DNA from: Paramacrobiotus metropolitanus
Taxonomy: Eukaryota; Tardigrada; Eutardigrada; Parachela; Macrobiotidae
Length of the DNA: 64,000 nucleotides
Assembly: GCF_019649055.1 (NCBI RefSeq)
Contig: NW_026570221.1
Span: forward strand, 1,612,001-1,676,000
Direction of reading: 5' to 3'
Of this stretch, positions 4,801-54,584 are shown piece by piece. Position 1 is the first letter of the stretch, and every line of letters begins with the position of its first letter. Both the position numbers and the translations under genes were made by a program. The notes beneath the pieces were generated by a model. The model ran no database searches, was not told the origin of the DNA, and worked only from the letters and a program-made list of their open reading frames with translations.

Positions 4801-6835
4801 GCCATCGGAACGTTCGCGACACCGTCTAGAGCTACGGCTCGGCTAATTTACGAAGTATATAAGATAGCATACATTTGCATAAGTGCTTGTAGTATTGAAA
4901 GTTTTCTTTGGTTGACGTTGCAGCTGCGACACATTAGCTCGGACAATATCAATGTCCTCCTTGGACTGAGCTTGGGCTTTAACAGAACGCGGCTGCTCTT
5001 TGTCGCGCCTTTCTGCGAACGCGGCTCTCTCCATGACCTTTTCGATCTACAAAATCGTCTGGATATGGACCTGCAAAATTCGCTCGCTATTGATCTTATT
5101 CGTGTACGTGCCGTTGTGTATGTCCTTATTTGGCTGCTGAGGTTTTCCAACTGTGGACAGAGGCTTTACTGTTCTATTAATAAACCGTTGAATTCAATGT
5201 AGGCAATACATTTCATCCATACCAAGACATCGCTCCGGTACCACGGTCATCTGTCGCGATGGGTGTGCCTTATTGATCGTCATTTCACCTTGAAAATTGG
5301 AAAATTTGGATACGTGGCATTATCGCAGAGTTTGTGCGGTCGTGCGGTAGAAAAGCCGCATGACAACGCTAAGAAACTGCTCTGGACAGCGCCAGAACTG
5401 TTACGAGACGCCAAAGGTCATCCAGACAAAGCCACAGATATCTACAGCACCGGCATTATTTTGTATGAGATTTTCACTTTGCGATATCCATACGACAATT
5501 CACCTCAACCTTCTGGCAACCTGGAAAACAATGGTACTACTGCTACGTTTTGGTCTAATTTCTGATAACACTCGTAATATATGTAAATCAAAGCCAACCA
5601 GGTGGTGAATGAATTTGATTTTGCGTTAGCTAATAAAATAATCAAGACCATCCGGAGCGGCCAGTCTCCATATCTGCGTCCAACAGTTGACCATCCCACT
5701 AGGCAGCTGAGTACGGTGATGCAAATTCTGGATGCATGTTGGAATGAGCAGCCAGCACTGCGCCCCGATTCTTCCAGTCTTCTCAATCAAATAACCAGCA
5801 AACTCGGCTTATCGTACAAACAGGATACATCGTTTTTTGATAATATATTACACCGACTGAAGAAATACGCTGACGCTTTGGAAGACGAAGTCTACAATCG
5901 CACCGTGGAGCTGCAGATCGAGCGGAAGCGCTGCGACGAACTGTTGTGCGAAATTCTCCCGCGCATTGTCGCGGAACGCCTGCGAAATGGGGGAAAGGTC
6001 GAACCAGAATACTTTGAAAGCGTGACGGTACTGTTTTGTGATGCATATGGATTTGAGACGCATGTCGTGGACCTACAGTCGCCGATTGCCGTCACGGGAT
6101 TTTTGGGGAAACTGTATTTCGCTTTTGATCCCGTTGTGAAGAGTTTTAATGCTTACAAGGTGGAAACAGTCGCCAGTTCGTACCTTGTATGTCTGTTCCG
6201 AGCTAAAAGCGAACAAAACCATGAACTATTACCAATTTTGTGTATTGCTTTTATAGATAGTCAGCGGTCTGCCAGTGGAAATCGACAACCACGTGAGCGA
6301 AATTGCGTCTTTGGCGCTGGCGCTCAAAAAAACGTTCGTCGTATTTGTGGAGACCGATGGGCTGCAGTTTGTCGGCGGTATGCATACCGGTATGAATCAG
6401 ATTCAAGATTTTCAACTACACTGCTTGTCAACTTTCATTATATTGTATATTAACCAAGTCATAAGATCAGGTTAAATTTACAGCACTTGACTTTAATGTA
6501 TGATATATCATGTGGCTTGTTTATAGGGCCATGCGTGGCTGGAGTGGTAGGCCACGTGAATCCTCGCTACTGCTTGTAAGCAGACGTTGTCACCCATTTA
6601 AAATTTTTCACAGCAAAATGTTCGTAGATTTGGCGACACAGTAAATACAGCCTCACGAATGCAGAGCTACAGCCTTCCTGGCTATATTCAGCTGAGCGCA
6701 GAAACGGCTGACCTCCTCCGCAGCGTTCCTTATCAGCCTTACGAAATCAAGGAGCGCGGGAGTATAGATATCAAAGGAAAGGGGGCGCAGACAACGTACT
6801 GGCTACTCGGAGGACACACCACTAGAATGCCTTAA
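1816..6835 (+). CDS. Receptor-type guanylate cyclase A, 17 exons, complete
   Basis: Single-pass membrane receptor guanylate cyclase. Exons: 1816-2164, 2621-2684, 2866-3164, 3265-3308, 3381-3419, 3502-3723, 3791-4024, 4084-4225, 4358-4445, 4503-4608, 4726-4854, 4924-5103, 5203-5533, 5594-6186, 6257-6389, 6527-6575, 6628-6835. All phases join to 1069 residues, normal for the family. Order: signal peptide, ANF-receptor-like ectodomain (to about 464), transmembrane helix (about 469-491), pseudokinase domain, coiled dimerisation segment (about 820-875), cyclase domain, with NTASRM near 1007 and guanine-selecting Glu933 and Cys1000 retained. The first metal-binding Asp (892, FCDAYGFE) is present, but the second, normally in GDAYM, is replaced by Ser937 (ASSYL). 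Catalysis is therefore doubtful. The start was chosen for its signal peptide and because gene B starts at the equivalent place. Gene B lies 1.66 kb downstream. Confidence 0.92.
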
Positions 6836-11400: not shown

Positions 11401-13306
11401 ATATTAGCTCAGACAACGTCAATGTTCTCCTCGGATTAAGCTTAGCGCTAAGTAAAACGCAATTACTGTTTGTTGCGCCGTTCTGTGACCGGGGCTCTCT
11501 CCATGACCTTTTCGATTTGCAAAACCGCTTGGACATGGACCTACAAAATTCGTTAGCTGTGGATCTTATTCGAGTCAGTAACGGTTAAAAACTTTTTCAT
11601 TTATCGGCGTCCTTCTATGAACCCGACTGCCGTTAATTCAAAATGTAGGCCATACATTTCATCCATACCAAGACGTCTCTCCGTCACCACGGCCAGTTAA
11701 CGCGACGGGTGTGCCTTATTGACCGGCACTTCACCTTGAAAATTGCTAAGTTCGGTTTCACAGCACTGTCACAGAAACTGTGTGGCCGTGCGGTATGGAT
11801 GCAGCATGATAACCCAATGAAGCTGCTCTGGACTGCGCCTGAGTTATTACGAGACTCTAACCATAGTCCAAACAAGGCGATGGACATCTACAGCATCGGC
11901 ATTCTTTTGTACGAGATCTTCACGCTGCGCTGTCCCTACGAAAATTCCCGACAAGCATCTGGAAACCTAGAAAATAACGGTAAAATAAGGACTTTATAAA
12001 GTTCGATATGCAGAGTAAATAAACGCGCAGTAGTACTTTAGCCAAAAACCATTCTCTACTATTTGATCATTCAACATTAATCAAAGTTCATTCAACGATT
12101 AAAAGCGGAATCATTAATCACTCACATCGGGAGTATGTACGTCTTCTTGCATTAGCTCAAAAAGTAATCGACGCCATCCGAAACGGGAACTCTCCGTATC
12201 TGCGACCAACAGCTGACCATCCAACGAAGCAACTCAGCATGATAATGCATACCCTACAGAAGTGTTGGAATGAACAGCCGGCACTTCGCCCGGATTCATC
12301 CAACCTTCTCAATGATATTACCAACAAAATGGATACGGCTTTCAACCATAATACTTCGTTCTTCGATAATATACTACACCGAGTGAAGAAATACGCAGAC
12401 GCTCTAGAAGACGAGGTCTATAATCGCACTGTTGAGCTACAGACTGAGCGGAAGCGCTGCGATGAGTTGCTGTGCGAAATTCTTCCGCGCATAGTCGCCG
12501 AACGCCTTCGAAATGGAGGAAAGGTCGAACCCGAATACTTTGAAAGTGTAACTGTGCTATTTTGTGATGCACATGGATTCGAAACCCATGTCGTGGACCT
12601 GCGGTCACCGGTCGCTGTCACGGGGTTTCTGAGCAAACTGTACTTTGCTTTCGATCCCGTTGTTAAAGGTTTTAATGCCTACAAGGTGGAAACAGTCGCT
12701 AGCTCGTATCTTGTATGTAATGGTGGACACAGTCACACAGGAGAGCACAAACATTGGTATTTGAATATTGTTTCGCTCTACAGGTAGTCAGCGGACTGCC
12801 AGTTAAAATCGGCACTCACGGGAATGAGATTGCCTCTTTAGCATTAGCGCTGAGGAAAGCGTTTACGGTATTTGTGGAGACCGATGGTCTGCAGTTTATT
12901 GGCGGCGTGCATACCGGTAACGCAGTACTTTAGCTCGATTTGCCGATTAGTACGCTTGATGTTTATTTTATGGCATGTTTAGGACCATGCGTTGCTGGAG
13001 TTGTCGGCCATGTCAATCCTCGCTACTGCTTGTAAGTAAATTAGTTATAACAACTTTGCTGAATTAGAAGCACGAAAAAGAAACTGCTTTACTTACAGAT
13101 TCGGCGATACAGTGAATACCGCTTCGCGAATGCAAAGCCAGAGCCTTCCAGGTCATATTCAGCTCAGTGCGGAAACTGCTGACCTCCTTCGCAGCGTTGC
13201 GCGTCCCGCTTATGAAATTAAGGAGCGCGGGAATATAGACATTAAGGGAAAGGGCTTGCAGACGACGTACTGGTTACATGGAACAAGCACTGCGAAGCTA
13301 CCTTAA
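8499..13306 (+). CDS. Receptor-type guanylate cyclase B, 17 exons, one frameshift
   Basis: Tandem paralogue of gene A with the same exon plan: 8499-8847, 9080-9143, 9209-9507, 9671-9714, 9799-9837, 9907-10128, 10216-10448, 10546-10687, 10790-10877, 10967-11072, 11207-11329, 11394-11573, 11649-11979, 12087-12712, 12784-12916, 12983-13031, 13099-13306. Exon 7 is 233 nt where A has 234. One base is missing in or near the T-run at 10283-10286, which shifts the ectodomain frame; everything else is open. This is either a young pseudogene or a one-base assembly error. Exon 14 uses an acceptor equivalent to that of A but adds about 11 codons. The cyclase core repeats A's change (ETVASSYL instead of ETIGDAYM) while keeping FCD, RYC and NTASRM. 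An AATAAA signal lies at 13435. Confidence 0.85.
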
Positions 13307-17880: not shown

Positions 17881-18691
17881 GAATGAATTTGATATCTACT
17901 GTTGGCGCTAAATGTTCGCGTCACTTTGCGGTGACAAATCATCAATCTGTTTATGGCTATTGCTCTTAAGGGTTTTTTTCTGCTAATCTTTCGCAGCTCG
18001 ATTTTTGCCAGAACTCTATGATTGCTTCATAAAGCCTTCATTCATTGTGCTTTCAAAATTAAGAGCATGTAAACCTGGTTATTTTGCTCATAAGCGTGAA
18101 TAATGTATTGAAGAATGATATTAATCCTAGACAGCATTTGCGCTACAAATCTTTTATTACATATTACATGTATCTGTTGCGGATGATTGTTTCATTGTTT
18201 TCCGTTGTTGGCTACAGAATGTGCTTACAGACTACTATTTCATATATGTTTTACGTGAGTAAGAATTACACATTACAGAAAATTGGTACTCAAGGTTAAA
18301 GTGCTGAATGTAACACGTTTGTTAATTCGGTCTGTATCTAATTATGGCATTGTATTCGTAAAATGATTTTAACATTTCTTTTCTTTTGCGAATATACATA
18401 GTACACCCGAACATCCGTACCGAAAAACGGGAAAATGATATTCGATTCAGCGGGTACCTTGCGTACAGCAACGTATATGAAAGCAGCGATCTCTGTGCCG
18501 TACTAGATCCTGTCACACCCACGATTCGTCAGCAAGATTATAATCGCACTACCTGTTAGTATAGATAAAAAATGCAACCAAATTTAAGCATGAACCACCC
18601 GGAATTCGAGTGGCCACTTGATCAGCGTTTGAACGGAAGCAGACAGACGCTGCGTTTAATTTGTAAATTGCAAACTTTATAAATTTGGCAG
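17881..18691. other. Intergenic region before the GH16 gene
   Basis: No exons with protein similarity were recognised. AT-rich. Several short open frames lack splice context or homology. Confidence 0.5.
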
Positions 18692-19459
18692 TTGACAGCT
18701 AAAATGACACCAATTACACTGATACGATGTTTCAGAGCTGCCCTGATCGCACTTGTAATAACATACTTATGTGTTCCGGTGATCGGCGTAAACCGCAAAA
18801 TTCTTACGTTTTCCGGGCGACAATGGTCTGTTCGCAATCAAACTCAAGCTGGTCCCGGTCCCAACAACTGGGATGAAACCAACATGTTTCTCGATAACAA
18901 AGGTCACCTGCATCTGAAAATTACCAATCGCAACGGAAATTGGTCCTGTGCGGGAGTCGCTGGCATCGAACGCCTGGGATTCGGTCGTTATCAGTTCCAG
19001 ATTGAAGGGCGTATCGACCGGCTGGATAAGAACGTTGTTCTGGGATTATTCAACTACCCCCCGCGCGACGTCGGTCCTGACACAACCAATGAGATCGACA
19101 TTGAATACGCTAAATGGGGGAACGCCAACGCCAAAACGGGAAATTTCGCGGTGTGGCCATCCGCCTCGGGGAGGAAACAGACATCGTATCGGTTTGATGC
19201 GACGCTAACAGGATCGTACACGACGCAGTCGTTTATATGGCGCAATGACACGATTTTGTTCAGTGCGCAACATGGACATCAGAATAATAACCGGCTAAAT
19301 GAATACGCTAGTTGGAGTTTTGCACCGGCAAGTTCACTGGATATTCCACAAAATCCCATGCCGGCGATGATGAATCTCTGGTTGTTCAAGGGTGCACCAC
19401 CGAGCGATATCCGCGAAGTCGAAATTGTAATTCATTCTTTCAGCTTTATCCCCTTTTAG
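18692..19459 (+). CDS. Secreted GH16-family glycoside hydrolase (beta-glucanase-like), intronless
   Basis: 255 residues in one exon. The N-terminal signal peptide (hydrophobic core ALIALVITYLCVPVIG) is followed by a single GH16-type domain. The active-site signature EIDIE is intact (around residue 134), with the two glutamates expected as nucleophile and acid/base and the aspartate between them. Surrounding landmarks (FGRYQF, LGLFNYP, HG-NNR, MPAMMNLWLF) fit the beta-jelly-roll enzymes that cut beta-1,3/1,4-glucans. A second ATG lies four codons downstream (18704). AATAAA at 19522 is a plausible polyA signal. The lack of introns, while almost every neighbour is multi-exon, and the compact bacterial-style domain suggest horizontal acquisition or a retrocopy. 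Two decayed copies lie at 24798-25225 and 57967-58735, both on the minus strand. Confidence 0.88.
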   Translation: MTAKMTPITLIRCFRAALIALVITYLCVPVIGVNRKILTFSGRQWSVRNQTQAGPGPNNWDETNMFLDNKGHLHLKITNRNGNWSCAGVAGIERLGFGRYQFQIEGRIDRLDKNVVLGLFNYPPRDVGPDTTNEIDIEYAKWGNANAKTGNFAVWPSASGRKQTSYRFDATLTGSYTTQSFIWRNDTILFSAQHGHQNNNRLNEYASWSFAPASSLDIPQNPMPAMMNLWLFKGAPPSDIREVEIVIHSFSFIPF

Positions 19460-21871: not shown

Positions 21872-22225
21872 ATGTATACCCATCAGCTGCTGTTGTTGAT
21901 AGTCTTCTGCGCCATTCTTACGGACTGTTTTTCTCACGCTGACAACGGTAAGAACATAAAAATGGGCTGATTGCCATTTCGTTGAACTGCATAAATTAAA
22001 GTAATATCCAGATGATGTGCTGCAGACAACACCGGCATTATTTATGCCCAAGCCAAGAAATGCGTCAAAAAGCTGTGCGGACCAGGATACGAGAATCCCT
22101 GTGCGGCACCGTGTAAATGCTGCGCAAAGGGCACAACAAATCGCGGACGCTGTTGTTTCACCCCGTCATCCAGCGCGGCCGGGGAAAATTACTATTCACA
22201 TGGATTAAGTTATGTGCATCCATAA
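21872..22225 (+). CDS. Secreted Cys-rich peptide 1 (CGPGxxNPC family)
   Basis: Two exons, 21872-21947 and 22026-22225, joined in phase 1, encode 91 residues. Exon 1 is a signal peptide (hydrophobic LLLLIVFCAIL, then DCFSHADN). Exon 2 carries the mature region: a cysteine, four residues, CGPGYENPC, three residues, CKCC, then about nine residues and CC after an NRGR segment, ending in a short Tyr-rich tail. The framework is C-x4-C-x7-C-x3-C-x-C-x10-C plus two extra cysteines. The coding frame of exon 2 is not the longest open frame there. AATAAA follows at 22414. The same framework recurs in the genes at 23771 and 30110. A small disulfide-rich secreted protein; its role is unknown. Confidence 0.8.
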
Positions 22226-23770
22226 AATATGTTGGAAAATACCTTATGTTCGCCATGGTATTTGTATTTAATCAAGCTATCGAGACGAACCATATTTCAC
22301 TACATTTTTGTCATCTCTGTATCAAATTTTACGTCTCTTCCGGTTTCCAGAGTATGTGCGTCATTTGAGTAACTCTCATGAACAACTCATAATACCATGT
22401 ATTGCTGGTTGTAAATAAACTGCAGCACCCAAATGTATATACACTGTCTCCTTGTCAAAATCAAAATGTTTATCTTAAGACAGGCATTTTATAAACAACA
22501 GTTCGATGTTATTCACGCAATATTTATGTTGAGATAACAGTTTAGCTCAGTTTCGTTCAAAGAATGTCAAAATTCAGGCTTGCGGTAAGTATTTACCGCA
22601 AACCTGCAGGTATACGCAAGGACGTTTAAATTAAAAGTCTAGATCTGGTGTGATCGGTGTACTTTATCAATTTGATGATGCTTTACCAATATATATATTG
22701 ATAATAATATATGCAAGAATATATTGGTCACGATATTATTAGTAAAACTAACCAAAAGTTTGTTCTGAATAAAGTCTTGTTTGAGTATGTATGTATTTAA
22801 ATAGAATGCATTTGGCTAGAGCAGCGGAGGGCGGCCGGCATAGCACGCGTTGTATGAGTAAGTGAAAACGACTTCCGCAGTCAAAAAGTCCGGTATTGTT
22901 TGTATTTCTAGCAGTACTGAATTTACCGGTAGGGTTACTTGTATTCTGATGCAATCCGGAAAACTGCAGTAATGTACAAATGCTGTAACATAATTATTCG
23001 TAGGTTTTTCTCCAAGACAGAAATGCTAATCTGTACAAAAGAATTTTTATCTCTAAATCTTTTATGAATTATCGTACGTTAAGTACACCAAACCTGCACA
23101 ATCTGTATCTGCAGAATTACAAAATTAATAATTATCATAGCTATGGAGCTATGAAATTTATTATGTCCAGCCGGAGCATTGTTGTACATCAGGCTAAATT
23201 TGTGATAATAATTTAAGCACTTTTGCTAGAATGTGCTACCCATGTCTGCAGACATTGAACACGAGAAAAACACGTTTGCACATTCGCGTGCTAACAAATT
23301 ACGGCTTTAACCAAATAACCATGAACTTATAATGCGACAGCTAAACTGAAACGATCACGTGTATTAAAGATGGTAGCAGTGGTGTGCTTGTCTGCTTGAC
23401 AACTCCAGTAATTTACTAAGCGCGATTGAAACAAAACAATGCGAATGATTCCGTAACGTTGCTATGTACTGGTATATATTTCCCATGGTATCGCCGCGTC
23501 TTCACGGAAGTGGAACTTTCCTTATTGGTTTGCAGGCAAAAACAACACAAAAACTGGCAACTAATTTCCTAAAATTCTTCCACAATGGTTTAAATGTCAT
23601 AGATAGCTCAGCAAGTTGTTTCCCAATTCGAAGCTGCACTTTTAATAAAAACTACGGCTGATCTCTTAATACATAATTTGCATTTTCGCATCTACGATTC
23701 TGACAACTCACAGTATTACCACAGTCGGTATCGGTGTTACATGTCTGTGCTACCTTTCCGTGCCAAAATA
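22226..23770. other. Intergenic region between peptide genes 1 and 2
   Basis: No gene seen. Includes an imperfect hairpin around TTGCGGTAA...TTACCGCAA (about 22581-22602) and AT-rich repeats near 22690-22740. Confidence 0.5.
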
Positions 23771-24496
23771 ATGGCAACACCGGTTCAGTTCTGTATGGCG
23801 ATGATCATCATTTGGGCACTTTCATCGACACACTGGAGGTTAATCTATGGGCAAAATCCTTAAGTGCCTGGAACTGGTAAGTCAGCCGATTAAAGGTAGA
23901 CCGTTTATTGAACAAAAAAAACCCTCTTACTTATTCATACTCGTGGAAGATTCGCATTATAGTAGATAATAATTAACTGGGATGTAACTTCAGGCTCTAG
24001 GTAACCTAGGTTGATTACACTGTTTTGCTTAAATCTTAAAATCTGTTAGCAGGAAAACATTACTTACTAAAATCACCATTAATGATTATGTACAGTAAAC
24101 GTGCTGCAATGAGTGGAGTCAGTGAATTTGTAGCCAAGCACGTTAATATGCATCGCTGTTGCTGTAACTATGGCATAAAATAACCGTAAGGTCAGTTTTT
24201 ACTTTCGTAATTCGTGCACTGCTGGGTTTTCTGGTTGGTTTACTTCTATTGTTTGGTTCGGACTTAAGACTTCTTTACATCTGACACGTAAGCAATATTA
24301 ACACATTGAATCGTGTTGCAGATGATGGTTTAATAAACTATCAAAATTGCCGTTTACGTTTAGCCGATTAGCACCATCCTGCCATCGAGCAAAATGTGGT
24401 CCGGGCAATTTGAATCCATGCTCCGGAAACATGTGTATTTGCACAAATATTTATGGTTCTCCCAAAAGTCGTGGTTACTGCCGTTGGAAGGGATAG
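23771..24496 (+). CDS. Secreted Cys-rich peptide 2 (CGPGxxNPC family)
   Basis: Exons 23771-23838 and 24364-24496 join in phase 2 (AG + C, serine) to give 66 residues. Exon 1 is a signal peptide with core FCMAMIIIWALSS. Exon 2 encodes the mature peptide: a cysteine, HRAK, then CGPGNLNPC, SGNM, CIC, twelve residues containing KSRGY, and the last cysteine near the C-terminus (RWKG). This is the minimal six-cysteine version of the framework, without the extra pair of peptide 1. The donor is GTTAAT rather than a consensus site, which is the weakest point of the model. The intron is 525 bases, and AATAAA lies at 24595. Phase agreement and the shared CGPG-NPC core support the call. Confidence 0.72.
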
Positions 24497-24797
24497 TACA
24501 AACACGATATTAAAGCTATAATTTCTGTATTTCTTTCGCATTTGTACATTAATTGCGTCCATATTCAGGTTATGGCAGTGACTCTTTTCGGTGGAATAAA
24601 AAATGTACGTTGTACGCGTCTAATGCAGTTTTCATGATCAGAAGCGACATTTAGCTAAATCGATCATGCAAATGTAAGCTTATTTAACTTTTAGAAGTCT
24701 ATTCGGTACTTCTGCGAACTTTAATAAAAAAGGGACTCTTCAGCGATGAGTCCGATACATGTATCTGTGAAAACATGGCACGTCTTTAGATATGCTT

Positions 24798-25225
24798 TTA
24801 CTGCTTCACCGGAGTGAAAATAAGGGAATAAATTATAATTTCCGTTTCCTGAGCATTACTCGGCGGCATTCCTTTGTACAACCACAGGATCATCATGACC
24901 GGCATTGGACTTTCAGGAATATCCAGTGCGCTTGAGGATGAAAATCTCCATTAAACCTACTCCTCAAGCCGGCTGTTATTTTGGTATCCATGTTGAGAAC
25001 TAATTGTAAACGTTTCGTTTCGTTGAGAACTAAACGTTTCGATACACTATCGTTTCGCCACGTGACTCGCCATGACTGCGTTCTATGTGATCCGGGCAAG
25101 GTCACATCAAACCGGTGAAAACTGCGGTTCCTTCCCGCCGCTGATGGCCATACGACAAAACCGCCGGTTCTCGCGTTGCCCCGTCCAGAATTAGTGGGTT
25201 CAGTGTCTCGTTTGATAAACTGCTG
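24798..25225 (-). pseudogene. GH16 glycoside hydrolase remnant
   Basis: The minus strand matches the C-terminal half of the GH16 gene at 18692. It includes a segment equivalent to NFAVWPSASGRK (about 25150-25190), the HG-x-x-NNR region, and a still readable end (VMMILWLYKGMPPSNAQETE, then a stop at 24798-24800). The part aligned with the catalytic EIDIE is destroyed and the frame is broken at least once, helped by a local duplication of CGTTTCGTTGAGAACTAA-like sequence at about 25010-25045. The N-terminal half is absent. Confidence 0.75.
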
Positions 25226-26093
25226 CCATCTACTGCTAAACAGATTGGTGTCTTTAGTATAATTATTTTGATAGAGTTTGACAGTTGCCGTACCCTACTC
25301 TGACGCCATGTTCTCACCATTTACTTGTATGTCGGCCCAATAAACAGTGTTCTTGTCGGGCTTCTAATCAGATGAGCCGGGAAGTTCCTGATGTGACTCA
25401 TTCATATCCGATTCCGGCCTGGTTAACTGTGCGTAGATTTTGCAGGATATTTTTGGTTCAGCTTTGTTGTGCGACAACTATCTATTTATCTGTTCCGCCA
25501 GCGCAACGTTAAACGCTTAAAAATTATGGATTTTCACACTAACAACCATCAGGATATTAACATGCAACCAAACACAGATTGTCCATAAACATGCATGACC
25601 ATTGATCGTGACCTTTAATAATTATTTCGATTCTGTCTACAGTCAAACCCCCAGGGGCCATGGATTAAAATTTCCCGACCAACGGTACTTAAGAGAATGA
25701 ATATTTTACGTAAATTTTACAGTAATATCCCTTTTGTGCACAGCACAAACCGGGATGATCGCACAAAGTCACAACATTTGCAACATGCAAACGATAAAAT
25801 GCGCAATTACAGAACTTGTTTATAATTCTAAAAACACGAATTGTATTAATTACCAGAACCCCTCTGGAAAAATTGCAATTAAAGCATAACAGGATGAAAG
25901 CGAATAAACTCCCAGGAGCAAAAAGTTAGCATCGAATTCATGTTTTCTCCGTCATTCTTGCATTGGAAGATCATTATGTATTTATTCCGGTTTGTACCCA
26001 TACGGACCTGCAAAAATTATTTTCTATTACAGTCAACGTCGCGCAGGTCTTGAAACATTCCTGTGCCATACGATCTGCACCACTGACGTACCT
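25226..26093. other. Intergenic region
   Basis: Nothing firmly supported. A short frame at 25285-25380 has four cysteines ending CSC, slightly reminiscent of the peptide family, but it lacks CGPG and a partner exon. Confidence 0.45.
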
Positions 26094-26975
26094 TCACATA
26101 AACAATGCATAACCAAACCCCTGTAGAAACGCAAATGAAGAAACGCAAATGCAGTTCAATGTCATAAAATATTTGTAAATGAATTTAAGTACTATACATA
26201 CATCTGTCCAGCTTGCCTCCTTGTTCTTTTCTCGTTCATCCGCCGGCGGTTCGGGGCTGTACTTCATCCATGCCGGGTACACCGTACATCCCGCGCTGAA
26301 TTTTTCCGCCGCCGCCACCTCCCGCAGACCCTGTTCCCACACCCCAGCATCTCCGTTGACGGGCAGACAAACCAGAAAACCTCTCCCGACGTCTGCGGCT
26401 CCCCAATGGCGATGGCCGTTGCGAAGCTGACCTCACGGGGCAGCCGCACCTGCTGCTCCTGGGGGATCTTCTCCGTATGCTTGCCCACGGTAATCAATCC
26501 GTTGGGAATGGAGTGCAGCAGGGTGCCTTCCAATTGCCCGGCATCCTCACTGCCGGCGATTTTAAACCAACGCAATACTCCGTCCCGACTCAGTACGGCA
26601 TCATAGCGTTTCCAGCTTTCCCCGAACCAGCGCGGTTTATAGTACAACAGCGGACCCTTGCAGACGACATCGGTTATCGTCTCGTAGCCACTCTCCAGTG
26701 TCGCCTCCGATGACGCGGCAATGGATAATGTTGATGACTTCAAGTGAGCCTAGATCGGAGACCGCGGACATACGGCGCGGTGAATCGCGCGGTTGTCGCA
26801 AGGAAACGATGCTGGATTTGCGGGAATGTGCCGGACTACTGTTTCCCGAATGGAGATTGATAACGGCCGACATCTTCCGCGGTTGGTCGCGGTGCATTAA
26901 GCGGATGGCCGAGTCGGTACTGGACTTTCGGGAATGTGCCGGGCTATTAACCGCCTTCTCCACCATATCGGACAT
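26094..26975 (-). pseudogene. PH-domain protein (evectin-like) with two frame breaks
   Basis: Read on the minus strand from ATG 26975, which is preceded by an in-frame stop. A Ser/Arg-rich N-terminus has two copies of a unit of about 35 residues starting SPAHSRKSS and ending PR(K/R)MSAV. A PH-type domain follows (KGPLLYYKPRWFGESWKRYD..., DGVLRWFK, then FWFVCPST), with the expected C-terminal helix (VWEQGLREV) in another frame and a hydrophobic tail of about 25 residues before the stop at 26094. The PH domain, C-terminal helix and tail order resembles tail-anchored evectins (PLEKHB). Two single-base breaks, near 26745 and 26355, interrupt an otherwise well-preserved protein. It is either a recent pseudogene or affected by sequencing indels. 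Confidence 0.6.
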
Positions 26976-29479
26976 TCGTTAAAACGGTTTGAAAGGTAGA
27001 AAATCTAAGCACTAAAACAATGTTGGTTTTATGAGAATTACACTTCTGTGAATAAATGATGTAAGTGCAAGCAGTGTGGAATAGTTTGCCGGAGTTTCAG
27101 TGCGAGCACGAGTGAGTCAGTGCATATGTGGATAATCCCAAGAATCTCGATGCATGTGAGCCAGTTTTTATATATACAAAGTACATACTCCGTACGCTTA
27201 AACGTACTCCGAAAACATCAATCGATACTCTCGCTCCTGTCTCGAGAGAGTGAAGAAAGAGCAAGCAGGAAAACGCCGACAGGAAGGTTGGGCCTTTGAC
27301 AGCCCGCGGCTCAATTGCATATTGCACGGATTGCAGGCGGGTGCCGTAGTTTTATGCAAGATTACGGTAATTCGAGCAGAAGTAATACGCAGTGCCGGCC
27401 CCCATCATGGCCACGACTGGAGGATCAAACAGTAATTTGATCACATTATTTGAATATTTTTTGTAAAATTTTCTGTTCGAATTACGAGCACTCCACGAAA
27501 TCATAAAATGACAACAGGCAAATTCATCACAATACGATCGAATACATTAATCGCACATGATAATTTTATTATTAACCTTTTGGAAACGTATGAAATCTTC
27601 CGCCACTTTGCACTATGTTCCTGGAACTTTTTTCTTTTGGATGATTGCATTTGGTTGATTTTAATTTGCCCATAGGGCATGTAGGATTCTTATGACGCGA
27701 TGCGTGCGTAGTGTACCTACAATTACAAAGTATAACCTGGAATACAACGGACAGCTCGATGACTGCAAGTCTATTTAGGGTGTGGCAGGAATGCACGACA
27801 ATCCACATCGTTTTCGGCTAATAGCAGCCCATTGGTTTATCACCTTTGACACAATATGCGTACAGCCGCAGCGAGTGACTGCATGGCACTTTAAATATTT
27901 ATGACCATGGCTTAACTTGTCGCTAAGTACAGTATATACTCGTACTAACCGTATAATTATAATACTTATACTTTTCGCTTTCATCTACAACATCTTTGCG
28001 TACAAGATATCACAGATACCACGGGAATGCTCTGGAACGCTTTAAGGATTTAGATTCAGTGCATCGTCAGTCGGGATGTGAACGTTATGTGTTTGTTTTG
28101 TCTGCAGTTTGCTTTGTAATCGGATCAACCAATGCGCCCGAAAACTGACTTCGAATCGTAACGTTACGACGTTAACGTCGTAACGTCACCCGCCATCGCA
28201 GCATAAACACGTACGAAAAACTAACATATTTCAAAACGTGATGGAAATTTATTGTGTGAGTAATAAGGTCTGAACTTACTATTTTCGAAATTCGATTTCG
28301 GATAAATCCATGTGATATCAAGTTCAACTTTCGATGGTGACAGCATCCGCATCTGTAGTCCCGGATGGTTTAGTCCCGGAAGAACTCAATCTGGCGTTAA
28401 TTGGACGCCGTTGAAGTTATCCCCAAGACACAGAAACCATGCGTATAGTAGTACGCTTGTTCCCTTTGACCATTTCCTAGTGTATCACTGCAATGCTTAA
28501 TTTTGCCAACTGTTACACTTTAATTTTGCGAAGTATGTACCCTTATTTTAACAGCTGGCCTAAATAAATTCGAATTTGCATATACTTCTCGTTAAGGTTA
28601 CTGGATTGAGTGGCCTTGTAGTGTTATAACTTAAAAACAGACATAATTATAGATGGGTGGGGCAAACGCCTTCGTGTCGGCCTGCTTTGTGGAGAATAGC
28701 AGATAAACGTAAAGGTGATTGTACTGCTAATATTAGATACTTAGGGATCGTGAATTTGTTTTATTTTTCCGTCAAAACGGCCACATTGGAGTGTGAACCC
28801 TTTACCGTTTAGTGTTCTAGCATGATATGAACAATCTTCTAAAACCTTTAGACATGTTCTTATTTGCCTTACTAAAAGGCACAAACTTCGAAAGAAAATT
28901 TAACCCATACAGCTTACCTGAGCAAAATACACAGTGTTAAGCAAATGACCTGGTACATGGCACTAGTTTCGTACACATGAACTTTAGATTTCGATCGCAC
29001 ACTTCAAACCTTTTTGTATCGCGAATTATGTCATTCTAGATCTATAACCGCGGAATTTGTACATATTGGCCGGAGCGTACCAAAAGTTAAGTTTTTTCTC
29101 AATTTTTTGAAACTTTGCTGTAAAACACGCGTCGTTATATGGCTAGCGCGAACCTCCACCAATGTAAAGAGCCTAGCGTTTTATTAAAATTTTAAAATGA
29201 ATTTTATAATCTTTGAAATTGATTTAAAACTGGACAAAATGCTATGATCGAAACCGCGCGCCACTTGCTCAGATGTGACTCATGGTCATATTGTGTATTA
29301 TTACAGAAACTTTTAAGAAGATCGGTAAAAATCGGACTTTGGTACGCGACAATGCGTTTAAACTTTTTGTCCACTTTAAGTCGTAATATCTCCGCAAATG
29401 GATGCCGGCACAAAACACTTTTCAAAACAACGTATACAAATCATTCGGCTATAAAATGATAAAACATATTCCCAAAGAT
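26976..29479. other. Intergenic region, no gene recognised
   Basis: About 2.5 kb of AT-rich DNA without supported exons on either strand. Contains the 26-bp palindrome at 28161. Confidence 0.5.
28161..28186. repeat. Perfect 26-bp palindrome
   Basis: ACGTTACGACGTT followed directly by its exact reverse complement, built from repeated ACGT/GTTAAC steps. Symmetry ends at A28160 and C28187. Confidence 0.9.
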
Positions 29480-30109
29480 GGGAACCCAGTCCACTACTCC
29501 GTTGATTTTTACGGCGAGTTTTGGTTGCGATTTTGTTTCGTAACCAGAAGCGAATGCAGGCAATTCACGGAGCGAGATTGACTCCATTAATCAGCACAGC
29601 CCCGCCAATTCAGCGGGACCGCTACTTGCTTAAAGAGCGACTAACTCATGGAAATCGCTGAGCAAATCAGGCTAAAAAAATGTTGTTTCAGTCCAGTTTC
29701 ATACGGTTATGTGAGCTTATATACCACATAAGAGAAATGTTTAGCTTTCGGCTTATTTGACCAGTATATAATTAATCAACCACCGTCCACCAACATGAAG
29801 TTCTGAATTCGATCAACTCAGGCCTTAAACGCCGGTCACAGGTAACTGGCAAACAATGGTATCATTAAAGAATTAAAATTAGCGTCATGCCAAAATTTTT
29901 TAAACTGCAAATCTGCAAATGTACACCTGCAAGCAGAGCACGTGATTCTAGCTATTTAGAAGTGTAATATCTTTTGTTGCTATTTTGTTGGAGTGTTCCG
30001 CTTGATGCAGCCGTTCCGATTTATAATGTCCATCGAAGCGTTCCCGAAGAGTGCTTTCGAATGCGCATTGTTGTACTTTCCCTAACATGGAGGCATGTAC
30101 GCAGTTGGT

Positions 30110-31195
30110 TTAAGGCCCTGTATAATCACCGGCGGCCGTGAATATGCAGAAACCCCGGTGTCTCGGTTCGCCGTTGTTCGAGCACCGGCATGGTCCTGGA
30201 CACGGATTGTTGCCACCGGGTCCACATGGATGGCGGTTGCATGTTGGAGCCAGGCCACGCAGAAGCCGTTTGTAGTCTGAAGACAACAATCGAGCGAGCT
30301 CCGCTGTTCAGGTCTTAGCATATTACCACGATTTGAACTACAGAAATTTACATTGACCGTAAGAGGCAAACGATTTAGTTTTTTTGCGGATTTTGAAACT
30401 GTATTACAACTACGATTATACGGCACTTCCAATGAAGTATGAATAAATAAGGATTAAGAATCAAAACGTGATTTCGGCTCTCGTAATGGCATTTTGCTGA
30501 ATATTTAGAAAGAGAAAACTAAAGTATATCAAACAATCCGCAAACTTTGCCGATTTGTGAAATCAAATGGTCAGCTGCAAATGTTTTCGTAAATAGCTTC
30601 GGTATAATTTTTGGACTTGAAATTCTGCGTGTAAGAGGCACACATAAATTCAAGTAACGAAAAAACGTTTATTGTACAGTGTACAATAATATTTTGCATA
30701 GAAGTATCTGAAAGAGTGGCACATAAGAAGTAGTGCATGGTAATTTCGTAGTTTTACCAAGGATGTGTTTGCATGTTGCCCGTGGCCTATGTTAGCTTAA
30801 CTTTAGTATTTGGAAATCGAATCTCCTTTTTCTAATTCCAAATTCTAATTCTAATTTTTTTAAAATTCTCCGTTAATTTTGGAAGCCGAGGCCGAAGATT
30901 GCCTGGTATCATACAGATTAAGTATCAATATATAAATAATCCTACAAAGTACTTGGGTAACCATAAAATTGACAAAGTACTGCATTATGAAATTAATTAT
31001 AGCATCAGTCTATACGAGCACAGGTAATTATGTATAAGTCCAATAAACATTATGATATAAAAACGTCATCCGTAATACCAGTACTACCTGTACTCACTGT
31101 TATTTTCTCAGCTTACCGCTAGGATTGAGGTACAACGTGGCGTTAATGACACTAAGCAGAACCGAAGTAACAATTAAAAATGCCAAAACCCTCAT
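30110..31195 (-). CDS. Secreted Cys-rich peptide 3 (CGPGxxNPC family)
   Basis: Minus strand. Exon 1 is 31195-31117 and exon 2 is 30276-30110, joined in phase 1, 81 residues. Exon 1 is a classic signal peptide (VLAFLIVTSVLLSVINA). Exon 2 gives a cysteine, NRHP, CGPGGNNPC, PGP, CRC, eleven residues including RHRGF, then the final cysteine and a short tail (ending GDYTGP). The coding frame lies inside a longer open frame that is not the gene. A TATA-like element sits about 150 bases before the ATG. Exon 1 and its promoter are duplicated at 38370, where exon 2 has been deleted. The intron is 840 bases. Pairing of the two exons rests on matching phase, strand and order; a cDNA would settle it. Confidence 0.72.
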
Positions 31196-47395: not shown

Positions 47396-48086
47396 AAAGG
47401 CAAAATGAAACGGCAAAGGCAAAGGGGCGGCAAAGGTAAAGTAGGCCGACCCGAGTTAAACAATAAACTAGGGACGTTACAGCCATAGTTTTTGCCTAAA
47501 CCTATCCAGTCAGCATAAATTAAACTCTGAATTACTGACGACAAGTGACCAGTGCAGAAAATTTGAGCTGTCGTAAAAGCAACTAAGTAAGTGTCGTAAT
47601 GCTGTCAGCCAATAGGTGGATGCCATGATTCTGGTAGTTTAAGGTAGTCTAGTGGTGTGTCCTCCGAGCAGGCAGTACGTTCTCTGCATCCCCTTCCCTT
47701 TGATATCTATACTCCCGCGTTCCTTGACCTCGTAAGGCTGATAAGGAACGCTGCGGAGAAGGTCAGCCGTTTCCGCGCTCAGCTGAATATAGCCAGGAAG
47801 CTGTAGCTCTGCATTCGTGAGGCTGTATTATTTACTGTGTCGCCAAATCTACGAACATTTTGCTGTATGAACTTTTAACTGGGTGACAACATTTGCTTAC
47901 AAGCAATAGCGAGAATTCAACCCCAGCAACGCACGGCCCTACAAACAAGTCACATGATACAGCATACATACATTTAAGTTAGGTGCTGCCAATGTAACCT
48001 AATTTTATGACTCTGTTGATATTTATTGAAAGTTGACGACCAGCATAGTTGAAAATCTGGAATCTGGTGCATACCGGTATGCATAC

Positions 48087-48393
48087 CAGGTGGTGAATGA
48101 TTTTGATTTTGCGTTAGCTCAAAAAATAATCGAGACCATCCGGAGCGGCCAGTCTTCATATCTGCTTCCGACAGTTGACCATCCCACTAGGCAGCTGAGT
48201 ACGGTTATGCAAATTCTGGATACATCTTGGAATGAGCAGCCAACACTGCGCCCCGATTCTTCTAACCTCCTCAATCAAATGACCAGCAAACTCGGCTTAT
48301 CCTTAAAACAGGATACATCATTTTTTGATAATGTATTACACCGGCTGAAGAAATACGCTGACGCTTTGGAAGACGAAGTCTACAATCGCGCTC
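48087..48393 (+). pseudogene. Inverted exon-14 segment inside the cyclase pseudogene
   Basis: About 307 bases read on the plus strand and match the first half of gene A exon 14 (VVNEFDF/ALA to DEVYNR), while both flanks are minus-strand cyclase sequence. The left junction falls in a palindrome, GCATACCGGTATGC (48069-48082), which in gene A is part of the exon 15 end. The right junction falls at the intron 13 acceptor. About 470 bases of cyclase domain were lost in the same event. Confidence 0.8.
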
Positions 48394-49428
48394 TGATTTA
48401 CGTATATTACGAGTTGTATTCAGAAATTAGACCAAAACGTAGCCGGTACCATTGTTTTCCAGATTGCCAGAAGCTTGTGGTGAATTGTCGTATGGATATC
48501 GCAAAGTGAAAATCTCATACAAAATAATGCCGGTGCTGTAAATATCTGCGGCTTTGTCTGGATGACCTTTGGCGTCTCGTAACAGTTCTGGCTCCGTCCA
48601 GAGCAGTTTCTTAGCGTTGTCATGCGGCTTTTCTATCGCACGACCTCACAAACTCTGCGACAATGCCACGTATCCAAATTTTCCAGTCTTCAAGGTAAAA
48701 TGACGATCAATAAGACACACCCATCGCGATAGATGACCGTGGTAACGAAGCGATGTCTTGGTATGGATGAAATGTATTGCCTACATTAAGTTTAACGGTT
48801 TAACAACATGACACAGAAGTCTCAATCAACAGTTGAAAAACGTCAGCAGCCAAACAAAGACATACACATTGGCCCTTACACGAATAAGATCCACAGCCAG
48901 CGAATTTTGAAGGTCCATATCCAAACGATTTTGTAATCAAAAAGATCATTGAGAGACCCGCGTTCACAGAATGACGCGACAAACAGCAGCCGCGTTCTGC
49001 TAAGGTCCAAGCTCAGTCCAAGGAGAACATTGATATTGTCTGAATTAATGTGTCGCAACTGCAACGACAACCAAAGAAAACTTTTGATACTGCAAGCAAT
49101 TATTCAAGTGTATGCTAGCTTACTTCGTAAATCAGCCGAGCCGTAGGCCTATACCGTTCCGCGAACGCCCCAATGGCGGTATTGACGTTATCGTCCAGTG
49201 GCATGGAATAAATTCAGACATGCTGCTGTACTGGCAAATACGCCGCCGAATACTACAGCATAATCAGAGTAACTTATTACATTTCTTTGATTTTTCAAAG
49301 CCTTGGAGAAATTCGTGTACGCACAACGACCTTTGCTGTTGATTTCCTAATGCCACTTCCACTCGTAACTTTAGATGATTATAAATTTATAACTGCGAAG
49401 CGGATTCTCAGATACCGTGAAAGTACTA

Positions 49429-50089: not shown

Positions 50090-52878
50090 ATAATAATAAT
50101 AATAATGAGTTTATTGTCCTTGCACGGAGCGGTTGCCCCCTTTAAGCTTCAGACAGCGAGACAGTGGTAAAAAACATACAGAACGTTACGACAACATCGT
50201 GAATCAATAATGACATGAAAAACATGAACGTCAGTATGCAGCAAACAAAAATTATATACGTAACAATTGAAAAAAACAACAGGAGGGAAGATTTTTTTTG
50301 TAGTTGCGATCAGTTGATTTCTATCGTGGAAAAGGGGAGGGAGACGATCGCGCTGGTGTCGATGCATAAAACCAAAACCCACGTTAATAATTATTGTCAA
50401 ATTTCAGAAAATGTTTTCAAAATGAAATCGTGGGAGAAAAGGAAAGCAAGGACACTTACGCACGTAATCGCCGTGTTGTACTGTTTCAACTAGATCGCAA
50501 CCGTTTAACAACTTTAGTGAATCTAAAGTTTTGTAGTACAGCAAAAAATTTAGGTTTACAAGAACGAACACAATTAGGATAAACACTAGTTCTGAAGACT
50601 TTCGCTGATGATATATCGTCCCATTTTACGGTCCTTAGAGCTTCCGTAAAGGCATCCAGCGTAACGTACGCAATGGGTTGCAAAGGAAGTTCATTCCAGA
50701 CGGACACAAGGTTGTTAAGATACGATCCATGGACAGGGGTCACAGTTACTCCGCAAACGGTTATCGGGGCGGGTTTGATCGGACAGGGATGCTTCATTAG
50801 GCGTTCTGAAATTCTGGTGTTTCCTGCAACAGACTCAAGCACGGCAGCGGAGAATGTGAGTGGTGATACGATTAGATCACCCATCGGTACCACCCGGAAA
50901 ACTAACTTGTATATAAACAAAAGTGCTTTTTTGAGACGTCGCGTTTTAAGATCATCCCACTGAAGCTCTTTTAGACGTTCTTCGTAATTCAAGACACTGT
51001 TGCCGAGCCGCAATGTTCTAGAAAATCTCCTTTGGCAACGTTCAATGAGATTTATCGACTGCTTGAACGAAGGATTCATAATGATGCAGCAGTAATCGAT
51101 AACTGAGAGGACAAGTGACTCGTAAAGTCGTATACGAGCACCATAGTCGGTGTAGCGAAAAATGTGGTTGATGTAGCTGATTCGTTTGTTACATTTCTTT
51201 ACCAGATTTTCGCTGTTGATCTTAAAGTTTAGTTTTCGGTCGACGAATATTCCCAGGTGTTTTACATGTTCACACTTTGGTATTGGAACGTTGTTGATGC
51301 TGTATTGATATGGGAAGTCAAGGGAGTTTTGTCTGGAAAAATGAACATGGGCGGATTTTGCAGCGTTCAGAACAAGCTGCTTGTTACTCAGCCACTCACC
51401 AAGATGCGTTAAGTCTTCCTGTAACAGCTGACTGTCCGATGCGTCGATGACTGGGCGAAACACAACAATGTCATCCGCAAAAACAAAAGCGGTGCTTCCG
51501 TTTTTCAGCGCACGTATGAACAAATTGAGGACACATAAAAACAACAAAGGCCCTAAAACAGAACCTTGAGGCACACCACTGCGGACAGGTAGCGAAGTCG
51601 AAATTTCATTTTCCACTGTAACACACTGCGACCGATTTTTTAAATAGTTAGAAATGAGATGCACTATCTGACTTGGAAGATTCATCTGAATCAGTGCGTC
51701 GATGATTGATTCATGAGAAAGCTTATCAAATGCTTTTGAACAGTCCAGAAACACAGCGTCTACAGCGTTGCTATTAGTAATAAAACCATTCACAAATTTC
51801 ACAAAAAGGAAAAGCTGTAGTTCAGTGGATCTTTTGTGCCGGTAGGCAAACTGGTGATCAAAAAGAGTGTTGTTTTTCTTAAATGGTCACGAATTAACTG
51901 GTCAAGACATCGTTCAAAAATTTTCGATACAGGATTCAGCATTGAGACCGGACGGTAACTGCTAGGTAGCCTGTGATCTGCAAACACTTTTGGCACTGGA
52001 GTTATGAAAAAATGCTTCCACCTTGCTGGGAATACGCCTTCGTTGATAGCGGCATCAAAAATCATTTTAAGCGGCTTAGTTATCGATAGCGCTGCGATTT
52101 TTAAACGTTTATTTGTAATTTCAAATTTACCACTTGACGCGGCAACAGAAGTTTTCGCAAGTTGTTCAAAAATTAATAGTTCTGAAATTTCCCAGGTCTC
52201 CTGGTTATTGCATAATACATTAATGTTGGTACCAGTACTTACAGTGAGCATTGCACACAGATTGAGAATCTTGATAAACTGTATTAAGTATTTTGGCTTT
52301 CTCACGATCTGTTGCAACCGACTTGCCATCGGCCACCTTGAGCGGTGGCATGCCGATACGATCATTCACTGACTTCATAAACCGCCAAAATTTAGAAGGA
52401 TTATTACGGAAAGCTGTAGATATATTCGAAAGCTTGTGTTTTCTAAACTTCCGCACCAGGGCATCACACTTCTTTGAGACAGTTTTCCATTTCATTTCCA
52501 GGTCAACTGATGCAGTTTTTCGGTACAGTTTAAAAGCTCGATCCCGAGAATTGACTGCTTTTTTTATGTTTTTAGGATATTTTACTGAACTTTTGCGTAA
52601 TTTTACATTTTCACAAACAAAAAAGGTTTTAGCTGTTGTCAGAAAAGTTTCTTCAACTTTTTATGCTCTTTGGTCTACGTTCAGACCGCAAAACAAATTT
52701 GCCCAGTCTACAGCATTTAACGCAACAAGAAATTGGTCGACTTTATCGTTCTCAATTTTCCACCGCTTGACTGTGCGAAACTTTCTCCGATACTTCTTCA
52801 GTTTCAAAGAAAATTCAAAACCAATATGGTCATTGCTGGAAGTGGGCGGGCTAATTGGGAATGCAGGCTCGAAAAGTG

Positions 52879-52888
52879 AATTCACGCT
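52879..52888 (+). repeat. Target-site duplication, left copy
   Basis: AATTCACGCT, identical to 53889-53898 on the other side of the nested retroelement fragment. Confidence 0.85.
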
Positions 52889-53888
52889 CGTCATTCCGCT
52901 TCCGGACTCGTGTCGCTGTTGCTTCCCAATCACGCGGCCGTGGACGCCACTAACGCAAAGGAATTGTGGAAAGCGAAAAGTGGTCAGACAGAACTCCCGG
53001 AATCGATCTACTTGAAGTCGCAGCCCGCATGGGATGTACCGCTCTGCAACATGTCGCTGTCGACACTGCTGGAAGTCTTCCGGGACGATGAAACTAACCG
53101 AGCCCGCCTCCTTGCCCAGTCGAAACCGGAAGCAGGTATCTGGCTGAATGCTTTGCCATCGGCGCATATCGGAAATCTCTTAGATGACGACACCCTCAAG
53201 ATATCAGTCGGACTCAGGCTGGGCGCAGTCATATGTGAAGCACACGCATGTGCCAAATGCCGCAAGCCTGTAGATGTATACGGCCACCATGGACTGTCAT
53301 GCTCGTTTTCGGCCGGGAGGCATGCACGACACGGTGCTTTGAACAGCATCGTGTGCCGATCATTGGTTTCGGCGGGCATTCCAGCAAAACTCGAACCTCG
53401 TGGCACATCCCATACATCTGAACGTCGCCCAGACGGATGCACGACCTTTGCCTGGAAACGTGGTATGTGTCTGGCTTGGGATGTCACCTGCGTCGACACT
53501 GTCGCCTCATCCCATATCAAGTCCACTTCCTCAGTTGCCGGATCCGCCGCGGCCCAAGCCGAAGACAAGAAAGCCAGACTCTATGCGTATCTTGTAGGCA
53601 GATACATTTTTGCAGCACTAGCCTTTGAAACGTTCGGGCCCTGGGGAAAATCGGCATCTGCTTTAATAAAGGAAATCGGCAAGCGGCTACAGCAACACAC
53701 CGGGAAACCTCGCTCACACGAATTCTTACGTCAACGTCTGTCGATCGAAATACAGCGAGGCAACGCGGCTTCCGTGCTGGGGACAATGGAAGGCGCGGAT
53801 AAATTAGAAGAAATTTTGGTATTGTAATTCTCTATTTGTTGCCAATTCATGTATTCTAACTGGCTTGTGCTAATAAAATATATTCACC
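52889..53888 (+). mobile_element. Nested 5'-truncated retroelement fragment, 1.0 kb
   Basis: A plus-strand insertion in the LINE endonuclease, flanked by the 10-base duplication AATTCACGCT. It contains one open frame (52910-53827, 305 codons) and a short 3' tail ending ATAAAATATATTCACC. The encoded C-terminal retroelement domain has a CxxC...GHHGLSC zinc-type motif, then RPDG, WDVTC and DT-ASSH motifs, and ends with QRGNAASVLGTM. Similar ends occur after reverse transcriptases in many invertebrate retroelements. The RPDG...WD arrangement resembles PD-(D/E)XK nucleases (my inference). A related copy ends this window (63099-64000). Confidence 0.78.
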
Positions 53889-53898
53889 AATTCACGCT
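53889..53898 (+). repeat. Target-site duplication, right copy
   Basis: AATTCACGCT, second copy of the duplication made by the nested insertion. Confidence 0.85.
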
Positions 53899-54584
53899 TA
53901 GTAGACAGAGATCAAGACAGTTTAGTCCTCTAGTGGGAAAATCGATTATCTGTGTCAGTCCAAATTCATTAACAGCTTTTAGTAACTCGCGGCTAGCTGG
54001 CCTGCTTCCAGTTTTGGTTGTCCAATTTATGTCAGGCCGATTAAAATCACCCATGATTATGCATTTCGTTAATAAATGAGCAGAGAAATTGGAACGCAGA
54101 TGTTCAATTAGCGCAGGAACAGCAAACATGCTTTTATCAGGCGGAGCATAAAAGGCAATAAAAATTCGATCAAGAGACAGAGAGTGTACACAGAGAATTT
54201 CAAGTAATGGAGTTTCCAGCTCCGTCTTATGAATTCCACGTAACGTATTACGAATTACAATAGCCACACCACCACGACCATCAGCTCGGGCCTTCCGAAA
54301 TACATTAAAGTTATCTAGGTCGGCGAAATCAGAATCTGTCATAAATGGTCTGTCGTATGTTTCCGTGAGTACGGTCACATCGCTGGCTGAGCAGAACAAA
54401 CTCACTTCTTCACTTTTATTGTTTACGCTTCTGACATTACAGCATCGAACACGGATGTTTTCAACAGGAGCCGGATGCTCCGGGTGTCTAACAGATACAA
54501 TTCGATGGTCCACACAATTTGGTAAATTAATATTCAGAGACGTAATTATTCCAGCAGAATTAGTTTTCAAAATTTCATGGTCAT

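What the first reader, a model, noticed from the sequence alone, without database searches (positions are those of the whole stretch)
21872..31195. A family of small secreted peptides with a C-x4-CGPGxxNPC-x3/4-C-x-C-x10/12-C framework
Three two-exon genes (21872-22225 +, 23771-24496 +, 30110-31195 -) each pair a signal-peptide exon with one cysteine-rich exon. All share CGPG, NPC, CxC and an RG two residues before the sixth core cysteine, while the other positions differ. The spacing does not fit standard EGF or inhibitor-knot patterns that I can name. In two of the genes the coding frame is not the longest open frame, so automatic annotation would miss them. A clustered, rapidly diverging secreted family may serve in defence, signalling or cuticle biology; the function is unknown.
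Basis: partly seen in the sequence, partly recalled or inferred. Interest (0 to 1): 0.82.

Follow-up and report, generated by a model that had tools for sequence, protein, structure and literature searches.

The report
Tardigrade family of secreted knotted mini-proteins
A tardigrade genome carries a small family of secreted peptides whose six cysteines follow a known knottin (cystine-knot) spacing, so this looks like a new, undescribed member of a familiar kind of very stable mini-protein, with its target still unknown.

Summary
Three genes lie at the stated places. Two (21872-22225 +, 31195-30110 -) have good splice sites and a phase-1 intron. The third (23771-24496 +) needs a weak donor, because the good one lies behind an in-frame stop. 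The assembly matches the tardigrade Paramacrobiotus sp. TYO in total size and longest scaffold. Genome-wide I find 13 loci in two subfamilies: seven with CGPG (one decayed) and six without.

The claim that the spacing fits no inhibitor-knot pattern is wrong. C-x4/6-C-x7-C-x3/4-C-x-C-x10-12-C is a knottin spacing with loops 3 and 4 of three and one residues. It comes close to the tick class B evasin motif but fails it in loop 1. Two middling-confidence models share one strand layout; their weak best structural matches are plant knottins (wrightide R1: 0.9 A over 28 residues). No Pfam model passes its cut-off for the 7 of 13 loci scanned, and PDB sequence searches gave nothing related. Disulfide pairing, expression and target are untested.

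Most likely: secreted cystine-knot binders or inhibitors, defence being the first guess. New member of a known kind; modest interest.

The parts
21872..22225 (+). gene 1: exon 1 21872-21947 (signal peptide), intron 21948-22025, exon 2 22026-22225 (cysteine domain; eight cysteines in the presumed mature part)
   Evidence: in-phase GT-AG splice, phase 1; family match; cysteine count
23771..24496 (+). gene 2: exon 1 23771-23838, exon 2 24364-24496; uncertain model, perhaps decayed
   Evidence: in phase only with a weak GTTAAT donor; good donor at 23877 behind in-frame TAA 23861-23863; no model with donor score of 0 or more; cysteine exon matches family
30110..31195 (-). gene 3: exon 1 31195-31117 (signal peptide), exon 2 30276-30110 (cysteine domain)
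   Evidence: in-phase GT-AG splice, phase 1; family match
   Evidence: in-phase GTATGT...TTTTCAG splice, phase 1; family match

Best explanation
This is a family of secreted knottins (inhibitor cystine-knot mini-proteins) of the tardigrade Paramacrobiotus. A signal peptide exports the precursor; the cysteine-rich part (about 31-35 residues from C1 to C6) folds into a small three-strand sheet held by disulfides 1-4, 2-5 and 3-6. The cysteines and the short loops 3 and 4 are kept, while loops 1, 2 and 5 vary and would form the contact surface. Shown here: gene structure of five loci, family membership, spacing, and conservation of the core. Inferred from spacing and models: the fold and the pairing. 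Inferred with little support: the job. My first choice for the job is an extracellular inhibitor or antimicrobial effector that binds an enzyme or a microbial surface through the variable loops (about 0.35); a cuticle or egg role, a signalling ligand and a salivary role share the rest. The confidence given is for the knottin family as such, not for the job.
Against: Disulfide pairing was neither measured nor read from coordinates. The models are of middling confidence (mean pLDDT 68 and 70, pTM 0.48 and 0.41; 12 rows each), every structural hit has E above 1, and two of the five for model 2 are an unrelated enzyme. Profile searches of PDB sequences gave 0, 0 and 1 (unrelated, E 2.3) match at E up to 10, and two single-sequence searches only unrelated proteins. 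Subfamily 2 against the ICK domains is marginal (16.2; 2 of 200 shuffles reach it), and the CGPG link may rest largely on that one motif. dS could not be estimated in 7 of 13 pairs and was zero in one. Gene models of subfamily 2 are incomplete. No transcript was seen.
Confidence: 0.82

Rival explanations
1. A six-cysteine fold other than a knottin, for example an EGF-like module with pairing 1-3, 2-4, 5-6, or an unknown one.
For: CxC followed by a glycine-rich stretch and a last cysteine recalls EGF; the fold models are of middling confidence and no PDB sequence relative was found.
Against: Pfam, which holds EGF models, gives nothing at E up to 10 for the family members scanned except one sub-threshold hit to Ac76. 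C3-x3-C4 is shorter than EGF domains have (recalled). The named small-peptide hits of both models are ICK peptides.
Confidence: 0.13
2. A salivary or stylet-gland knottin, delivered while feeding on rotifers or other prey and acting like tick class B evasins or other saliva knottins by blocking a protein of the prey.
For: Cysteine spacing close to tick class B evasins; several tick saliva families are knottins (passages); the TYO strain is reared on an alga and a rotifer (passage).
Against: Loop 1 differs from the evasin motif in every member; no expression data; tick evasins bind vertebrate chemokines, which rotifers are not known to have (recalled).
Confidence: 0.15
3. Peptide ligands for the receptor guanylate cyclases encoded next door in the window.
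For: Guanylate-cyclase exons lie at 5587-6450 and 12023-12784; some receptor cyclases have small cysteine-rich ligands (recalled).
Against: The genome has at least 200 cyclase matches (849 candidates, 150 scored), so proximity is weak evidence. In the part of that list shown, none lies within 30 kb of the C7, C86, C100, C71 or C30 loci.
Confidence: 0.05
4. Decayed relics without function.
For: C222 is a broken copy (10-bp insertion in the signal-peptide exon relative to C100, sixth cysteine lost); gene 2 may be broken; the C86 copy at 220342 lacks C4.
Against: Gene 1, gene 3, the fourth gene, C30 and C100 splice in frame with six core cysteines intact; dN/dS below 1 where it can be estimated.
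Confidence: 0.04

Closest known systems
Tick class B evasins (EVA3 family; Cys6 motif, knottin)
   Same: Secreted six-cysteine peptides with C3-x3-C4-x1-C5 and a loop 5 of 10-11 residues, diverged paralogs, variable outer loops (PMC8569228 and PMC6643034, passages)
   Different: Loop 1 is x4, x5 or x6 here and x3 in evasins; some loop 2 and loop 5 lengths fall outside the motif. Chemokine binding untested. Evasins are reported only from ticks. No sequence homology shown.
Squash-type ICK peptides of Momordica (MCh-1, PDB 2m2q)
   Same: Loops 3 and 4 constant while 1, 2 and 5 vary (PMC3792974, passages); weak structural match of both models
   Different: A plant family without demonstrated sequence homology; loop 5 is longer here (recalled). 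MCh-1 is not a trypsin inhibitor; no inhibitor activity known here.
Cystine-knot alpha-amylase inhibitors (wrightide R1, PDB 4bfh)
   Same: Model 2 superposes at 0.9 A over 28 of 30 residues; six-cysteine knottin
   Different: Their spacing is CC-type, C-x6-C-x6-CC-x4-C-x4-C (PMC5171801, passages); here C4 stands three residues further on and loop 5 is longer. No amylase site tested.
CC-type ICK domains in the same genome (C46 and C123 loci; Pfam UPF0506 and Toxin_12/Toxin_7 below cut-off)
   Same: C2 followed by GPG or GPA, glycine before the last cysteine, and the same C3-to-C5 distance of six positions; hhalign 23.7, 0 of 200 shuffles
   Different: CC at C3-C4 instead of C-x3-C; tandem domains in one open frame of a longer protein rather than a one-domain secreted peptide.

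Membership tests
Knottin / inhibitor cystine knot (ICK) | Six cysteines in an ICK-compatible spacing | tested here: met
   11 of 13 loci have all six core cysteines with C-x4-6-C-x5-7-C-x3-4-C-x1-C-x10-12-C; C222 lacks C6 and the C86 copy at 220342 lacks C4
Knottin / inhibitor cystine knot (ICK) | Disulfides 1-4, 2-5, 3-6 with the 3-6 bond through the ring | not testable with these tools
Knottin / inhibitor cystine knot (ICK) | Small three-strand sheet of knottin type | tested here: inconclusive
   Two models agree on strands at C2, C4-x-C5 and C6 and hit ICK peptides, but pLDDT is 68-70 and E values are above 1
Tick class B evasin | Cys6 motif C-x3-C-x6,10-C-x3,6-C-x1-C-x10,11-C | tested here: not met
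   Loop 1 is x4-x6 in every member; loop 2 is x5 in subfamily 2; loop 5 is x12 in gene 2 and the fourth gene
Tick class B evasin | Binds CXC chemokines | not testable with these tools
   Needs a binding assay
EGF-like domain | Match to a Pfam EGF model | tested here: not met
   No EGF family at E up to 10 for the 7 of 13 loci scanned
CC-type ICK toxin families (Pfam Toxin_7, Toxin_12, UPF0506) | Adjacent C3-C4 and a Pfam match | tested here: not met
   C3-x3/4-C4 in the 12 members that keep C4; no such Pfam hit for family members; only the separate C46/C123 domains give sub-threshold hits

The most novel reading that the evidence does not exclude
The family arose inside tardigrades from a CC-type ICK domain like those at C46 and C123, by one cysteine sliding from C3+1 to C3+4 while C3 and C5 stayed six positions apart, followed by spread as single-domain secreted peptides. 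That would make this genome a natural record of how one knottin type turns into another, with a lineage-specific set of defence or feeding effectors as the product.
Probability: 0.2. Interest if true: 0.55.

Novelty: new member of a known kind. Interest (0 to 1): 0.4.

Why it matters
Tardigrade immune effectors are little known: a comparative study leaves open whether tardigrades have novel antimicrobial peptides (PMC7056985, passages seen). A family of short, two-exon secreted knottins that gene prediction tends to drop is a concrete, cheap-to-test candidate set. It also adds a case to the question of whether near-identical cysteine spacings in ticks, plants and tardigrades arose independently.

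Tried and rejected
Weak genome hits dropped from the family: C191 (E 0.41), C10 (0.15), C93 (0.46), looked at in translation and judged unrelated; C8 and C132 (0.39 each), not looked at. C46 (0.035) was kept only as an ICK comparator. A fifth knottin-like framework at 1842 + is an out-of-frame reading of an exon and was rejected.

Pfam on the cysteine domains gave one sub-threshold hit, Ac76 at E 0.19, rejected. PDB single-sequence searches gave only unrelated proteins. Scans of viral contigs and of prokaryote genomes with one window protein gave 66 and 591 pattern matches and no relative by tblastn; these scans find close relatives only. Eukaryote genomes other than the window's own were not available, so the range among tardigrades is unknown. 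EVA3 was not among the fold-search hits; that is no evidence either way.

Consistent neighbours: at C30 a chitin-binding CBM_14 exon; otherwise nothing recurrent was seen, but only about 5 kb either side was looked at for most loci and few frames were scanned.

Papers: title listings for 'tardigrade' with 'knottin' (1 paper, off topic), 'cysteine-rich peptide' (3), 'antimicrobial peptide' (36, 12 listed), 'astacin' (5), and a five-term salivary search (47, 10 listed). No title or abstract start describes this family; the full texts were not read, and the library lacks most subscription papers.

Full report
What was checked. The window is bases 1612001-1676000 of contig C1 of an assembly of 169,799,020 bases in 533 contigs; C1 is 4,484,719 bases long. 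The published assembly of Paramacrobiotus sp. TYO has 170,483,395 bases, 684 scaffolds and a longest scaffold of 4,484,941 bases (PMC8277472, passages); a later paper on P. metropolitanus quotes a 170 Mbp genome (PMC11191345, passages). The near-identical longest scaffold makes this tardigrade the very likely source. That TYO and P. metropolitanus are the same is my inference and recollection.

Gene models. Genes 1 and 3 splice cleanly in phase 1. A fourth gene at 21241-20121 on the minus strand does so too and stands head-to-head with gene 1. Two further loci, on C30 (310312-310210 and 310066-309891, minus) and C100 (377072-376946 and 376818-376664, minus), have the same phase-1 intron; in both the residue at the splice point is E followed by F. 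The C100 donor, GTACAA, is weak. Gene 2 stands apart: its phase-2 model uses a GTTAAT donor, while the GTAAGT donor nearby would fit phase 1 like the others but lies behind an in-frame stop. Either the weak donor is used or the gene is decayed. Signal peptides were judged by hydropathy and by eye only.

The family. Twelve searches of the own genome, eleven of them with proteins and one with the cyclase family, give 13 loci. Subfamily 1 (CGPG) has seven: four in the window, C100, C30, and C222. C222 is a decayed copy of C100: 83 and 88 per cent identical over 1340 and 201 aligned bases, a 10-bp insertion in the signal-peptide exon and no sixth cysteine. Subfamily 2 has six: four on C86 within about 8.5 kb, one on C71 and one on C7. 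It lacks GPG, reads C-x5-C-x5-C-x3-C-x-C-x11-C, and one copy (C86:220342) has lost C4. Subfamily 2 gene models are incomplete. One C86 copy (222349) is open from a signal-like start through the cysteine domain, and signal-like starts followed by Thr-rich or Asn/Thr-rich stretches lie upstream of others. The tree of the short core supports subfamily 2 (98), C100 with C222 (94), gene 1 with the fourth gene (82) and gene 2 with gene 3 (76), and little else (ultrafast bootstrap). Gene 1 has eight cysteines in its presumed mature part, the extra two each next to C5 and C6. Presumed mature net charges (K+R-D-E) are +1 to +7 for the nine loci counted.

Framework. In subfamily 1, C1-C2 is x4 in six loci and x6 in the fourth gene; C2-C3 is x7; C3-C4 is x3 (x4 in gene 2); C4-C5 is x1; C5-C6 is x10 to x12. 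The tick class B evasin motif is C-x3-C-x6,10-C-x3,6-C-x1-C-x10,11-C (PMC8569228), with a crystal structure showing pairing 1-4, 2-5, 3-6 (PMC6643034). ICK peptides of Momordica keep loops 3 and 4 and vary 1, 2 and 5 (PMC3792974). All three papers were seen as passages.

Homology tests. hhalign scores the two subfamilies at 31.8 (probability 89.7), against shuffles that keep the cysteines in place with mean 13.9 and maximum 25.6. It scores subfamily 1 against CC-type ICK domains from the same genome at 23.7 (probability 57.6), against mean 9.3 and maximum 15.6; 0 of 200 shuffles reach either score. Subfamily 2 against those domains scores 16.2 and 2 of 200 shuffles reach it. The shuffles break up the GPG run, so the second result may rest on that motif alone and could be convergence. 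The ICK domains themselves match solved ICK peptides (best E 0.0037, Xt3a). In the typical CC domain C3 and C5 are six positions apart (CC-x4-C), as in the family (C-x3-C-x-C); only C4 differs in place. This is read from the alignments.

Selection. Of 13 pairs compared by the Nei-Gojobori method on 32-33 codons, five have a usable dS, with dN/dS 0.11 to 0.44: C86a/C86b, C86b/C86c, C86a/C71, C86b/C71 and gene 3/fourth gene. In seven dS could not be estimated, and for C100/C222 dS is zero with dN 0.066, as expected if C222 is decaying. This supports real coding genes and gives no sign of positive selection, but it has little power in subfamily 1.

What it probably does. Nothing here measures function. 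Secreted, diversified, mostly basic knottins are commonly inhibitors, antimicrobials, ligands or channel blockers (PMC4695807 and PMC6643034, passages). I put extracellular inhibition or defence first at about 0.35, then salivary use at about 0.15, then cuticle, egg or signalling roles. Adjacent receptor cyclases suggested a ligand-receptor pair, but with at least 200 cyclase matches in the genome adjacency means little.

Verdict. A real, undescribed family (as far as the paper listings show), but of a known kind. The novelty lies in the host lineage and in a possible path from CC-type to C-x3-C knottins.

Noticed in passing
window 5587-6450 + and 12023-12784 +: Guanylate-cyclase exons (PF00211, E 7.4e-9 and 2.6e-10) of what look by eye like tandem receptor cyclases; a similar frame at 48030-48506 gave no Pfam hit at 0.01. 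The genome has at least 200 matches to this family, a striking expansion.
   Followed up: partly
window 18683-19456 +: Glycosyl hydrolase family 16 exon (E 1.2e-6), next to the peptide cluster.
   Followed up: no
window 50489-55400 -: Reverse transcriptase (E 6.4e-26) and endonuclease frames of a LINE-like element.
   Followed up: no
window 26264-26978 -: Long open frames between genes 2 and 3 whose translation looks by eye like a PH-type domain with serine-rich repeats; the frame 26267-26749 gave no Pfam hit at E 0.01.
   Followed up: no
window 1842 +: A knottin-like cysteine framework in a wrong frame over what looks like a receptor-cyclase signal-peptide exon: a chance match.
   Followed up: yes
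L036 (C46) and L037 (C123): Two tandem CC-type ICK domains in one open frame. What follows looks by recalled motif like the start of an astacin protease, but Pfam at E up to 1 does not show it.
   Followed up: partly
L009 (C222): Decayed copy of the C100 gene with its flanks, 83 to 88 per cent identical.
   Followed up: yes
L010:2589-3290 - (C30): Chitin-binding CBM_14 exon (E 4.4e-11) close to the C30 family member.
   Followed up: no
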